Shown: in pieces, positions 13,333 through 57,197 of the stretch | Position numbering within the stretch: position 1 is the stretch's first letter | Layout of the letters: each line of letters begins with the position of its first letter | From: Streptococcus mitis | Lineage (GTDB): Bacteria; Bacillota; Bacilli; Lactobacillales; Streptococcaceae | Direction of reading: 5' to 3' | Length of the DNA stretch: 64,000 bases | Assembly: GCF_000722765.2 (NCBI RefSeq) | Contig: NZ_CP028415.1 | Coordinates: forward strand, 750,501 to 814,500 | The notes under the pieces: generated by a model | The model's input: the letters and a program-made list of their open reading frames with translations, nothing else | What the model was told of the DNA's origin: nothing | Databases searched by the model: none | Translations under genes and position numbers: made by a program

Positions 13333-13435
13333 TACTCTTCGAAAATCAAATTCAACCCACGTCAGCGTCACCTTGCCGTACTTAAGTACAGCCTGCGGCT
13401 AGCTTCCTAGTTTGCTCTTTGATTTTCATTGAGTA
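13333..13435 (-). repeat. BOX element (A-C type, no boxB), copy 1
   Basis: This 103-bp element runs TACTC to GAGTA and on the minus strand reads as the boxA end (CAATGAAAATCAAAGAGC) followed by the boxC end (GACGTGG...TTTTCGAAGAG) with no boxB. It has the same length as, and near-identical sequence to, the copy at 55499-55601. It is flanked by TAA on both sides. It lies between convergent transcription units and disrupts nothing. Confidence 0.9.
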
Positions 13436-13452
13436 TAAAATTGAAGAATTGT

Positions 13453-16446: not shown

Positions 16447-16583
16447 GTTGACTATGCACGTTCCTGTGCAACCGCACGAACATCGTTGCTTGATTATTCA
16501 AGTTTAAGTGGTTTGTCCCACGATGCTAGGCGAGTCTTCACAAAAAAATCGGGGAAACCCATAAAAATCATAGGAGGTGCATA
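16447..16583 (+). ncRNA. Ribosomal protein L21 leader (candidate)
   Basis: A leader of about 137 nt lies before rplU with dense pairing potential, such as TTGAA near the 5' end with TTCAA near 16497 and GTTCCTGTGC/GCACGAAC arms. Its place directly before rplU-prp-rpmA matches the known Firmicute L21 leader. I identify it by position and foldability rather than by matching a covariance model. Confidence 0.6.
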
Positions 16584-39324: not shown

Positions 39325-39458
39325 GTTGAGAAAAGCAGAAGTGAGAGCTTCTCGCCTTGTGACATTAAGTTGCCTGGCCCTACGGATGAAAAGTTTCTAA
39401 GAAACGCTATCATAACGTGCGGGCTTGTATTATTACGAGTCCGTTATTGTTTTTCTCT
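39325..39458 (+). ncRNA. L20-type leader with attenuator before infC
   Basis: A structured leader of about 130 nt lies before infC-rpmI-rplT. It ends in an intrinsic terminator: CGGGCTTGTA pairs with TACGAGTCCG (two G-U pairs) around TTAT, followed by TTATTGTTTTT (about 39420-39457). Upstream arms include GAGAAAAGCAG...CTTCTC and GTTTCTAAGAAAC. In Bacillus the equivalent leader is bound by L20, which promotes termination. The same role here is inferred from gene order and the attenuator. Confidence 0.75.
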
Positions 39459-54472: not shown

Positions 54473-54486
54473 AAAGAGGAATGAAG

Positions 54487-55347
54487 ATGGAAAAACTAGT
54501 TGCCTATAAACGTATGCCTTTGTGGACTAAAGAAACTATGCCAGAGGCTGTTCAGCAGAAACACAATACCAAGGTTGGGACTTGGGGGAAAATTACTGTC
54601 TTGAAGGGAGCTCTCAAGTTTATTGAATTGACAGAAGATGGTGAGGTTTTAGCTGAGCACCTCTTTGAAGCAGGAGCCGACAATCCAATGGCGCAACCTC
54701 AAGTCTGGCACCGAGTGGAAGCTGCCACAGACGATGTAGAATGGTACTTGGAATTTTATTGTAAACCTGAGGATTATTTCCCTAAAAAATACAATACCAA
54801 TCCTGTTCATTCAGAAGTTCTAGAGGCAATGCAGACAGTAAAACCAGGGAAAGCCTTGGATTTGGGCTGTGGTCAAGGCCGTAATGCACTCTTTCTAGCC
54901 CAGCAAGGTTTTGATGTGACAGCTGTGGATCAAAATGAACTGGCCCTTGAAATCTTGCAAAGCATTGTTGAGCAGGAAGATTTGGATATGCCTGTTGGTC
55001 TTTATGATATCAATTCAGCTAGCATTGGGCAAGCTTATGATTTCATCGTATCGACAGTTGTTTTGATGTTTTTGCAAGCAGACCGTATTCCTGAAATTAT
55101 CAAAAATATGCAGGAGAAAACCACTGTTGGTGGCTATAATCTTATCGTCTGTGCCATGGACACGGAGGATTATCCTTGCTCAGTTAACTTCCCATTCACA
55201 TTTAAAGAGGGAGAATTGGCTGAATACTACAAGGATTGGGAGTTGGTCAAGTACAATGAAAATCCTGGTCATCTTCACCGTCGCGATGAGAATGGCAATC
55301 GCATTCAACTACGCTTTGCGACCATGCTAGCTAAGAAAATCAAGTAA
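54487..55347 (+). CDS. tehB: SAM-dependent methyltransferase, TehB type
   Basis: The 286-residue protein has an N-terminal DUF1971/cupin-like domain (about 1-90, PQVWHRVEAA) and a C-terminal SAM-methyltransferase domain with motif I ALDLGCGQGRNALFLA near 122. TehB confers tellurite resistance in other bacteria; the physiological role is unclear. The second ATG is chosen because GAGGAATG supplies its binding site. A terminator/competence-box repeat follows. Confidence 0.88.
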   Translation: MEKLVAYKRMPLWTKETMPEAVQQKHNTKVGTWGKITVLKGALKFIELTEDGEVLAEHLFEAGADNPMAQPQVWHRVEAATDDVEWYLEFYCKPEDYFPKKYNTNPVHSEVLEAMQTVKPGKALDLGCGQGRNALFLAQQGFDVTAVDQNELALEILQSIVEQEDLDMPVGLYDINSASIGQAYDFIVSTVVLMFLQADRIPEIIKNMQEKTTVGGYNLIVCAMDTEDYPCSVNFPFTFKEGELAEYYKDWELVKYNENPGHLHRRDENGNRIQLRFATMLAKKIK

Positions 55348-55356
55348 ACACACATG

Positions 55357-55398
55357 AAGATTAGGAATTTTCCTGATCTTTTTTCTTTTTTACGAATA
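55357..55398 (+). repeat. 42-bp direct repeat, copy 1 (terminator plus competence box)
   Basis: AAGATTAGGAATTTTCCTGATC with its T-run forms the tehB terminator, and the repeat ends in TACGAATA. It matches the copy at 56181-56222 at 40 of 42 positions. The pair flanks hicAB. Confidence 0.88.
55391..55398 (+). promoter_or_regulatory. SigX competence box upstream of hicAB
   Basis: A perfect TACGAATA behind TTTTTTCTTTTTT, as in the coiA and comEA promoters. Transcription from it would enter hicAB. Confidence 0.75.
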
Positions 55399-55413
55399 GA
55401 TAAGATAGAAGAA

Positions 55414-55442
55414 TTGACAAAAATACGCATTATAAGTATAAT
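55414..55442 (+). promoter_or_regulatory. Consensus SigA promoter of hicAB
   Basis: A perfect TTGACA, a 17-bp spacer and a perfect TATAAT. The ATG of hicA lies 24 nt after the -10. Toxin-antitoxin promoters are typically autoregulated by the antitoxin. Confidence 0.88.
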
Positions 55443-55465
55443 TTTAGATAGAAAAGTGACCATAC

Positions 55466-55760
55466 ATGCCAATCACAGGTAAGGAAATGGTAAAATTATA
55501 CTCAATGAAAATCAAAGAGCAAACTAGGAAGCTGACCGCAGGCTGTACTTGAGTACGTCAAGGAGAAGCTGACGTGGTTTGAATTTGATTTTCGAAGAGT
55601 ATTAGCTCTTGCAAATGGCTGGATTGAAGTACGTAAGAGAGGAAGTCATTATCATTTTAAGAAAGAAGGGGTTCCCTATCTTGTCACTATTCCAGTTCAC
55701 GGTAATGAGGATCTAGGAAAAGGTTTAGAGAGAAAAATATTAAAAGATTTGGGATTATAG
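55466..55760 (+). pseudogene. hicA: HicA toxin gene split by a BOX element
   Basis: HicA is a small dsRBD-like mRNA interferase. The first 11 codons (MPITGKEMVKL) are intact, the BOX element follows, and the remaining 51 codons resume after it, including the active His in RGSHYHF and the PVHGNEDLGKGLERKILKDLGL end. Removing the element and one flanking TTA gives an intact 62-residue HicA. As it stands, translation stops at a TGA inside the BOX and the distal part is out of frame. No good Shine-Dalgarno is seen. Confidence 0.9.
55499..55601 (+). repeat. BOX element (A-C type, no boxB), copy 2, inside hicA
   Basis: The 103-bp element runs TACTC to GAGTA with boxA-like ACTCAATGAAAATCAAAGAG and boxC-like GACGTGGTTTGAA...TTTTCGAAGAG. 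TTA flanks it on both sides (55496-55498 and 55602-55604). It is almost identical to copy 1 at 13333-13435 in the opposite orientation. Confidence 0.92.
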
Positions 55761-55787
55761 TTGATTTGGAAATTGTGGAGGTGTATT

Positions 55788-56165
55788 ATGCTAAAATCTT
55801 ATCCTGCTATTTTTCATAGAGAAGGCACTGGATACTGGGTTGAATTTCCTGAATTTGGAGGCGGGACTGAAGGAGCAACGATTGAACTTGCAATGAAAAA
55901 TGCTCGGGAAATGCTTGAGAGTGTTTTAGCATCTTATATTGATGAAGGACTGGCTTTGCCTACTCCTAGTGACATTGCTGAGTTGAAAGCTCCTGATGGA
56001 TTTGTGACTTTGATTCAGGTCAATCCCTTGCCTTTCGTAAAGAATAATAAGGCGATTCGAAAAAATGTTACGGTTCCAGAGTGGCTAGTCAGACTTGCAG
56101 ATCGTGAGAAAGTGAACTATTCTGAAGTGTTGACACAAGCTCTTGAAAGTCGCTTGCAACTCTAA
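55788..56165 (+). CDS. hicB: HicB antitoxin
   Basis: The 125-residue protein has a partial RNase H-like N-domain (SYPAIFHREGTGYWVEFPEFGGGTEGATIELAMKNA, in parts, residues 3-40) and a C-terminal ribbon-helix-helix DNA-binding region (KNVTVPEWLVRLADREKVNYSEVLTQAL, in parts, from about 95). It is intact although its toxin partner is broken. GGAGG lies eight bases upstream of the chosen ATG. Its terminator is the second 42-bp repeat. Confidence 0.9.
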   Translation: MLKSYPAIFHREGTGYWVEFPEFGGGTEGATIELAMKNAREMLESVLASYIDEGLALPTPSDIAELKAPDGFVTLIQVNPLPFVKNNKAIRKNVTVPEWLVRLADREKVNYSEVLTQALESRLQL

Positions 56166-56180
56166 AATTATAGAGTGATC

Positions 56181-56222
56181 AAGATTAGGAAATTTCCTGA
56201 TCTTTTTTCTTTTTTGCGAATA
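56181..56222 (+). repeat. 42-bp direct repeat, copy 2 (terminator plus competence box)
   Basis: AAGATTAGGAAATTTCCTGATC plus T-run, ending in TGCGAATA. It ends hicB transcription and holds the coiA promoter. It differs from copy 1 at two positions. Confidence 0.88.
56215..56222 (+). promoter_or_regulatory. SigX competence box of coiA
   Basis: TGCGAATA behind a T-rich tract, 21 nt before the coiA ATG. It has one change (A to G) from the TACGAATA seen at copy 1. Confidence 0.85.
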
Positions 56223-56243
56223 ATATAGAAAAGGAGGGAAATC

Positions 56244-57197
56244 ATGTTTGTTGCGAGAGATGCTAGGGGAGAATTGGTAAATGTGTTAGAGGATGAACTT
56301 GAGAAGGAAGAATACACCTGCCCAGCTTGTGGAGGTAAGCTCCGTTTGCGTCAAGGACCAAGTGTCCGGACCCATTTTGCCCACAAATCCCTAAAAGATT
56401 GTGATTTTTCCTCTGAAAATGAAAGTCCAGAACATCTGGAAAATAAGGAAGTCCTCTATCACTGGTTGAAAAAAGAGGCCGAGGTGCAATTAGAATACCT
56501 GCTTCCAGAGCTTAAACAGATTGCGGATGTGTTTGTAAATGGCAACCTAGCTTTAGAGGTTCAGTGTAGCTCCTTGCCTCAAAAAGTTCTTAAAGAGCGC
56601 AGTGAGGGCTATCGTAGTCAGGGTTACCAAGTACTGTGGTTGCTGGGGGAAAAACTGTGGCTCAAGGATCGTTTGACTCGTCTGCAAGAAGGTTTTCTTT
56701 ATTTCAGTCAAAATATGGGATTTTATGTTTGGGAAGTAGACAAGGAAAAACAGGTTTTAAGACTCAAATACCTGATTCACCAAAATCTCCGAGGTAAACT
56801 CCATTATCAGATTAAGGAATTTCCCTATGGTCACGGTAGTTTACTGGAGATATTACGTTTTCCCTATAAGAAACAAAAAATATCTTATTTTACAGTTTCT
56901 CAGGACAAGGACATTTGTCGCTATATCCGACAGCAACTTTATTATCAAAATCCCATTTGGATGAAAGAACAAGCAGAAGCCTATCAGAAGGGAGAAAATC
57001 TCCTGACTTATGGACTAAAAGAATGGTATCCACAAATTCGACCACTAGTAGGCGAGTTTTGCCAAATTGAGAAAGATTTGACTCGCTATTATCAGTATTT
57101 TCAAACCTATTACCAAAAAAATCCTCAAAATGATTGGCAAAAGCTTTATCCACCAGCCTTTTATCAGCAATATTTCTTAAAAAATATGGTAGAATAG
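56244..57197 (+). CDS. coiA: Competence protein CoiA
   Basis: Late competence protein needed for recombination of incoming DNA. The 317 residues have a zinc-ribbon-like start (YTCPACGGKLRLRQG, near residue 28, and THFAHKS) and a nuclease-like core (ADVFVNGNLALEVQCSS, near 95) of the CoiA family. AAGGAGGG lies upstream and the SigX box drives it. pepF follows at 18 nt. Confidence 0.94.
   Translation: MFVARDARGELVNVLEDELEKEEYTCPACGGKLRLRQGPSVRTHFAHKSLKDCDFSSENESPEHLENKEVLYHWLKKEAEVQLEYLLPELKQIADVFVNGNLALEVQCSSLPQKVLKERSEGYRSQGYQVLWLLGEKLWLKDRLTRLQEGFLYFSQNMGFYVWEVDKEKQVLRLKYLIHQNLRGKLHYQIKEFPYGHGSLLEILRFPYKKQKISYFTVSQDKDICRYIRQQLYYQNPIWMKEQAEAYQKGENLLTYGLKEWYPQIRPLVGEFCQIEKDLTRYYQYFQTYYQKNPQNDWQKLYPPAFYQQYFLKNMVE

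What the first reader, a model, noticed from the sequence alone, without database searches (positions are those of the whole stretch)
55466..55760. HicA toxin gene inactivated by a BOX element while HicB stays intact
A 103-bp BOX element sits after codon 11 of hicA. Deleting it with one of the two flanking TTA triplets restores a full 62-residue HicA with its active His. The element brings an in-frame TGA and a net +1 shift. This leaves a promoter-proximal toxin remnant and an orphan antitoxin under a perfect SigA promoter. BOX elements usually lie between genes, so one inside a toxin gene with the antitoxin retained is a clear case of repeat-mediated toxin loss. HicB may still act as an autoregulator or guard against related HicA toxins.
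Basis: partly seen in the sequence, partly recalled or inferred. Interest (0 to 1): 0.75.

Follow-up and report, generated by a model that had tools for sequence, protein, structure and literature searches.

The report
Toxin gene split by BOX repeat
In this streptococcus a short mobile repeat has jumped into the toxin half of a toxin-antitoxin pair and left the antidote gene whole; related genomes carry the same broken copy or an unbroken one, so this is a well-documented but fairly ordinary case of a gene switched off by a mobile repeat.

Summary
A 103-bp boxA-boxC-type BOX element lies between duplicated TTA triplets after codon 11 of hicA, ends its reading frame after 28 codons and shifts the rest; hicB, its ribosome-binding site and the consensus promoter are intact. 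Relatives show what happened: 10 genomes carry an uninterrupted hicA with a single TTA, 4 others plus the window carry the BOX at exactly this site. All five hicA-BOX copies share two bases absent from 21 of 21 other copies looked at, so this is most likely one insertion. Mosaic and tree evidence (window and L019: 1 mismatch in 797 bp, more divergent flanks) suggests that the broken allele has since moved between lineages by recombination; the coiA tree alone does not show it. In this clade hicAB sits between two copies of a 45-bp terminator repeat; 20 of 20 fetched sites without hicAB (picked as such) have one copy. HicB of the window is identical in protein to HicB of two genomes with unbroken hicA, so it probably still represses its promoter and can neutralise HicA; this is inferred. 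BOX gene disruption and orphan antitoxins are in print; this hicA case was not seen in my search listings. New member of a known kind, modest interest.

The parts
55354..55398 (+). left copy of a 45-bp direct repeat holding the tehB terminator hairpin and T-run; left edge of the hicAB cassette
   Evidence: the repeat finder; terminator scan; one copy in 20 of 20 fetched sites without hicAB
55414..55442 (+). sigma-70/SigA-type promoter of hicAB, TTGACA-17-TATAAT
   Evidence: 12 of 12 matches; both hexamers kept in 14 of 14 aligned alleles (read)
55423..55439 (+). imperfect palindrome overlapping the -10, likely HicB operator (inferred)
   Evidence: 2 mismatches to a palindrome that I read from relatives; only match in the window, 0.09 expected
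55466..55498 (+). 5' part of hicA, first 11 codons
   Evidence: same 11 residues in 14 of 14 alleles apart from residue 2
55499..55601 (+). BOX element of boxA-boxC type (103 bp) flanked by TTA target-site duplication 55496-55498 / 55602-55604
   Evidence: TTA on both sides in 21 of 21 other copies looked at; hairpin -37.7 kcal/mol, z -5.13
55550..55552 (+). in-frame TGA that ends the hicA 5' frame inside the BOX
   Evidence: 28-codon frame
55602..55760 (+). 3' part of hicA, out of frame, no start codon ahead of it
   Evidence: Pfam PF07927 10-58, E 1.3e-16
55788..56165 (+). hicB antitoxin gene, intact, 125 aa, with GGAGG ribosome-binding site just upstream
   Evidence: Pfam PF15919 E 2.2e-10; 22 bases upstream identical in 12 of 14 alleles
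56178..56222 (+). right copy of the 45-bp terminator repeat; right edge of the hicAB cassette

Best explanation
One BOX element of the boxA-boxC type, a miniature non-autonomous mobile repeat, inserted at a TTA in codon 11 of hicA in some Mitis-group lineage and duplicated the TTA (shown by the empty site). It cuts the HicA reading frame to 28 codons and leaves the catalytic part out of frame with no start codon (shown), so no functional HicA is expected (inferred). The promoter and hicB are untouched (shown), so HicB is probably still made from the hicAB transcript, which now carries the BOX hairpin, represses its own promoter through the palindrome over the -10, and can neutralise cognate HicA (all inferred). 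The toxin-null, antidote-plus allele then moved between lineages by homologous recombination (well supported), and coexists with intact alleles and with sites that lack hicAB (shown).
For: Uninterrupted with a single TTA, 10 of 10: L001, L003, L004, L007, L008, L009, L011, L057, L060, G180. Interrupted at the same base: window, L002, L006, L010, L019. TTA on both sides of 21 of 21 other BOX copies looked at (by their flanks these are about 14 distinct sites, since several are the same site in different genomes). BOX positions 36 and 66 carry a base in 5 of 5 hicA-BOX copies that is found in 0 of these 21. Window against L019: 797 bp with 1 mismatch, the longest such stretch among 66 pairs (next 400, median 199); 200-bp bins outside it lie at 90.5-99% identity, mostly 91-95%. 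AU test rejects one clade of interrupted alleles for tehB (p 0.013) and hicB (p 0.0012), 12 alleles. HicB of the window is identical in protein to HicB of L001 and L057, which have intact hicA. hicB pN/pS is 0.215 among interrupted and 0.157 among intact alleles.
Against: The coiA tree does not reject one clade (p 0.229), and in all three trees the well-supported branches alone do not force more than one change of state; genes this recombined make poor trees. The hicA remnant shows no decay: no stop or indel in 5 of 5, pN/pS 0.082 against 0.190 in intact alleles, odd for a long-dead gene. The likely reason is a recent insertion or flanks refreshed by recombination: the BOX copies differ by a mean of 1.8 in 103 bases (my count) while silent divergence of the 3' part is 0.10, and 5 of its 9 variable sites carry only alleles also seen in intact genes. 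The 4 alleles private to interrupted genes are 3 silent and 1 replacement, too few to decide. The 21 comparison BOX copies are best matches to the query or its window neighbour, not a random sample. No expression data.
Confidence: 0.85

Rival explanations
1. Plain decay: the locus is a dying TA system; hicB is kept only because too little time has passed, and neither HicB nor the BOX does anything.
For: Sites without hicAB are common in the group (20 fetched), so the system is dispensable; the BOX copies are nearly identical, so the event is probably young; orphan antitoxins are common elsewhere and may come from degrading pairs (PMC7192599, passages).
Against: hicB is open in 5 of 5 interrupted alleles with pN/pS near that of intact loci; promoter and ribosome-binding site are kept. 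Short time or recombination alone could explain this.
Confidence: 0.4
2. Toxin-null, antidote-plus allele kept as protection: HicB from the broken locus neutralises HicA that enters with intact hicAB DNA by transformation, an anti-addiction role.
For: Window HicB is identical in protein to HicB of two intact loci; intact alleles are common (10 of the 15 compared); the broken allele has probably moved between lineages. The anti-addiction idea for orphan antitoxins is in print (PMC7192599, passages).
Against: Movement without selection would look the same. Only 1 of the 4 interrupted genomes held has another HicA. No functional test.
Confidence: 0.15
3. The BOX changes hicB expression (new promoter, hairpin in the leader, RNA cleavage site), so the insertion is regulatory and not only destructive.
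For: A BOX upstream of pneumococcal yefM-yoeB created an extra promoter (PMC4803016, passages); boxA and boxC are reported to stimulate downstream genes (PMC3049150, passages); the hairpin is stable.
Against: The consensus scan found no promoter-like site inside the BOX on the + strand.
Confidence: 0.2
4. The interrupted gene still yields some HicA by ribosomal frameshifting, so the BOX lowers toxin output and does not abolish it.
For: The 3' frame is open for 22 to 31 codons upstream of the remnant and overlaps the 5' frame inside the BOX; the remnant is not decayed.
Against: No start codon in the 3' frame ahead of the remnant; I saw no recognised slippery site (by eye, no search); the product would carry dozens of foreign residues near its start.
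Confidence: 0.02

Closest known systems
BOX insertions that disrupt pneumococcal genes (Croucher et al. 2011, PMC3049150)
   Same: Same element family; the paper reports a DNA alkylation repair gene disrupted by BOX in all pneumococcal sequences then available, and says that BOX has terminal inverted repeats and causes target-site duplications (passages)
   Different: Here the target is a TA toxin, the insertion is polymorphic with intact alleles, and the empty site is seen directly
BOX element upstream of S. pneumoniae yefM-yoeB (Chan et al. 2011, as told in PMC4803016)
   Same: A BOX element at a type II TA locus (passages)
   Different: There it lies upstream and adds a promoter to a working pair; here it lies inside the toxin gene and breaks it
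Studied hicAB loci (S. pneumoniae HicBA; Y. pestis HicA3-HicB3)
   Same: Toxin gene ahead of antitoxin; in Y. pestis the main HicB3 operator overlaps the -10 (PMC11594946, passages), as the palindrome does here; solved HicB chains 9svk_B and 5yrz_A match at E 1.5e-11 and 1.8e-11 (that 5yrz is the pneumococcal complex is recalled)
   Different: Distant sequence, other locus; toxin interrupted here; the type of DNA-binding part of this HicB was not tested
Orphan antitoxins in Klebsiella (PMC7192599)
   Same: Antitoxin kept without a working toxin; 2253 occurrences there (passages)
   Different: Here the toxin remnant and the causing insertion are still visible

Membership tests
BOX element (boxA-boxC type) | sequence match to other BOX copies in Mitis-group genomes | tested here: met
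   95-96% identity to 20 fetched copies over the full 103 bp, 93% to the second window copy. That this sequence is what the literature calls BOX (boxA and boxC without boxB) is recalled; no call compared it with a published consensus
BOX element (boxA-boxC type) | target-site duplication shown against an empty site | tested here: met
   single TTA in 10 of 10 uninterrupted alleles, TTA on both sides in 5 of 5 interrupted ones
BOX element (boxA-boxC type) | strong hairpin with paired ends | tested here: met
   -37.7 kcal/mol, z -5.13, ends paired
BOX element (boxA-boxC type) | mobilised in trans by a transposase | not testable with these tools
   no transposition assay; the proposed ISSpn2 link is from the literature only (PMC3049150, passages)
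HicA toxin (PF07927) | HicA profile match | tested here: met
   3' piece alone, 60.9 bits against cut-off 27
HicA toxin (PF07927) | conserved His in G-S-H | tested here: met
   GSHYHF in window and L019, GSHHHF in 10 of 14 alleles, GTHHHF and GCHHHF in one each; that a His is catalytic in HicA comes from PMC11594946 passages, that it is this one is by motif, recalled
HicA toxin (PF07927) | complete open frame | tested here: not met
   28-codon 5' frame, 3' part out of frame without a start ahead of it: a broken gene, not a working HicA
HicB antitoxin (PF15919) | HicB profile match and complete open frame | tested here: met
   41.2 bits against cut-off 27; 125 aa
HicB antitoxin (PF15919) | binds and neutralises HicA; binds own operator | not tested
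   inferred from identity to HicB of intact loci and the palindrome
type II toxin-antitoxin module | both partners have a complete frame | tested here: not met
   toxin frame broken in the window

The most novel reading that the evidence does not exclude
The interrupted hicA with intact hicB is a selected toxin-null, antidote-plus allele that spreads by transformation through Mitis-group streptococci because it lets cells carry or receive the hicAB locus without its cost: a natural cheater allele of a chromosomal TA system, made by a mobile repeat.
Probability: 0.12. Interest if true: 0.55.

Novelty: new member of a known kind. Interest (0 to 1): 0.3.

Why it matters
It is an unusually clean natural series at one site (no hicAB, intact hicAB, toxin-broken hicAB) with one traceable insertion, which would let the cost of a chromosomal toxin and the value of a kept antitoxin be compared between close alleles. 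It also gives a direct empty site for the TTA duplication of BOX. It does not change how BOX elements or HicAB are understood.

Tried and rejected
Independent insertions at the same TTA: unlikely, because all five hicA-BOX copies share two bases seen in 0 of 21 other copies looked at. Assembly artefact: very unlikely (four other assemblies). Restart inside the BOX giving a shortened HicA: no ATG/GTG/TTG in the 3' frame ahead of the remnant in 5 of 5. A second HicA in the window: the only strong match is the remnant itself. Selection on the remnant: pN/pS is low in interrupted alleles, but recombination with intact alleles explains it at least as well. Rfam at gathering score found nothing at the locus. 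Literature: searches (20 of 286 listed; 20 of 26; 20 of 178; 10 of 19); no title or start of abstract listed describes hicA interrupted by BOX. Passages of six papers were seen (PMC3049150, PMC6722419, PMC11594946, PMC4803016, PMC10865869, PMC7192599); no paper was read whole.

Rows left out: L009 and L011 (diverged neighbours; only the coiA side of L009 is on its contig) were left out of the trees, the pN/pS counts and the 66 pairs, but kept; L005/G180 was left out of the alignments because the locus is split over two contigs; L012-L018 and L020-L022 were not counted as alleles of this locus because no tehB and no full coiA match lies beside them. The 20 hicAB-less junctions were picked because their tehB and coiA matches adjoin; others were not fetched. 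A script count finds one terminator copy in 19 of the 20; the 20th (L108) has one shortened copy, seen by eye. The two-copy repeat is present in 10 of the 12 hicAB loci scanned, not in L009 and L011. L127 and L128 were fetched; L127 was scanned only, L128 listed only, and neither is used.

Full report
What is there. The window is Mitis-group streptococcal DNA (closest relatives are S. mitis and its kin). Between a tehB-like gene (54481-55347) and coiA (56244-57197; both names are mine, from the sequence) lies a hicAB pair under a promoter with 12 of 12 consensus positions. hicA begins at 55466 and is interrupted after codon 11 by a 103-bp element, 55499-55601, with TTA on both sides. The 5' frame ends inside the element after 28 codons; the remainder of hicA is in another frame and has no ATG, GTG or TTG ahead of it. 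The remainder alone is recognised as HicA (profile 10-58, E 1.3e-16) and hicB as HicB_lk_antitox (E 2.2e-10).

The element is a BOX of the boxA-boxC type. It matches 20 fetched copies from other genomes at 95-96% over its full length and a second copy in the window (93%); in 21 of 21 of these, at about 14 distinct sites, TTA lies on both sides. They were taken from the best matches, not at random. As RNA the element folds into one long hairpin with paired ends (-37.7 kcal/mol, z -5.13, 0 of 200 shuffles as good).

Relatives give the empty site. A search of genome contigs with HicB gave 22 loci. L001 is a tenth uninterrupted one, the window a fifth interrupted one. All 10 uninterrupted alleles have a single TTA at the site. 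Thus 5 of 15 alleles are interrupted at one and the same base, and the TTA is a target-site duplication.

One insertion, then recombination. At BOX positions 36 and 66 all five hicA-BOX copies carry a base found in 0 of the 21 other copies, so they most likely descend from one insertion. Their flanks do not group together: one clade of interrupted alleles is rejected for tehB (AU p 0.013) and hicB (p 0.0012), not for coiA (p 0.229) (12 alleles). Few branches of these trees are well supported, and the supported ones alone do not force more than one change. The stronger sign is the mosaic: window and L019 share 797 bp, 55470-56266, with one mismatch, while 200-bp bins outside lie at 90.5-99% identity, mostly 91-95%; it is the longest such stretch in 66 pairs (next 400, median 199). 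The broken allele has therefore most likely been exchanged between lineages.

The cassette. hicAB is flanked by two copies of a 45-bp repeat that holds the tehB terminator (55354-55398 and 56178-56222, 93% identical); 10 of the 12 relatives' hicAB loci scanned also have two, L009 and L011 have none. In 20 tehB-coiA junctions picked because they lack hicAB there is one copy in 20 of 20 (19 by script, one shortened copy by eye). In five other genomes the place holds a large frame that looks like a surface protein (by eye, no family search), in G110 a short stretch that looks like a BOX, in G233 a surface-protein-like frame next to hicAB. The place is thus a site of gene turnover, and the pair is dispensable.

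Has the remnant decayed? No stop or indel in 5 of 5. pN/pS of the 3' part is 0.082 among interrupted and 0.190 among intact alleles. This does not show that the remnant is in use: the BOX copies differ by a mean of 1.8 in 103 bases (counted) while the 3' part differs by 0.10 at silent sites, and five of its nine variable sites carry only alleles also present in intact genes, as expected if recombination brings in sequence from intact alleles. Private alleles are 3 silent and 1 replacement (H to Y after the conserved His, in window and L019), too few for a test.

hicB and its likely role. HicB of the window is identical in protein to HicB of L001 and L057, which have intact hicA. Its pN/pS is 0.215 among interrupted and 0.157 among intact alleles. 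Its ribosome-binding region is identical in 12 of 14 alleles. A palindrome-like site overlaps the -10 (2 mismatches to a palindrome read from relatives; 0.09 expected in the window); in Y. pestis the main HicB3 operator also overlaps the -10 (PMC11594946, passages), and HicB is said to bind palindromic operators (PMC10865869, passages). It is therefore likely, not shown, that HicB is made, represses its promoter and could neutralise HicA. A guard against another HicA in the same cell is not general: of the 4 interrupted genomes held only G227 has a second HicA; the window's own genome is not held.

Against what is known. BOX disruption of genes is in print (DNA alkylation repair gene; PMC3049150, passages), a BOX at a TA locus is in print with another effect (extra promoter at yefM-yoeB; PMC4803016, passages), and orphan antitoxins are common (PMC7192599, passages). 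I saw no report of hicA broken by BOX in the listings, judged from titles and starts of abstracts, some lists being capped. The case is a new member of a known kind.

Noticed in passing
window 55348-56243; L119-L124, L126: The tehB-coiA interval is a site of gene turnover: empty in 20 picked genomes, a large surface-protein-like frame (748 to 4402 aa, the 748-aa one beside masked sequence) in G001, G253, G184, G256 and G186, a BOX-like stretch in G110, a surface-protein-like frame plus hicAB in G233.
   Followed up: partly
window 55423-55439: The palindrome-like site over the -10 of hicAB is more symmetric in distant relatives (such as L020, L022) than in this clade; L019 has lost a further position.
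   Followed up: partly
window 55535 and 55558: The BOX of the window and L019 differs from the other three hicA-BOX copies at two positions that may pair with each other in the hairpin in a shifted register.
   Followed up: no
window 13406-13437 (- strand): A second BOX element of the same type in the window, 93% identical to the one in hicA, also flanked by TTA.
   Followed up: partly
window 16460-16547 and 39327-39458: Rfam L21 and L20 ribosomal-protein leaders, ordinary.
   Followed up: no
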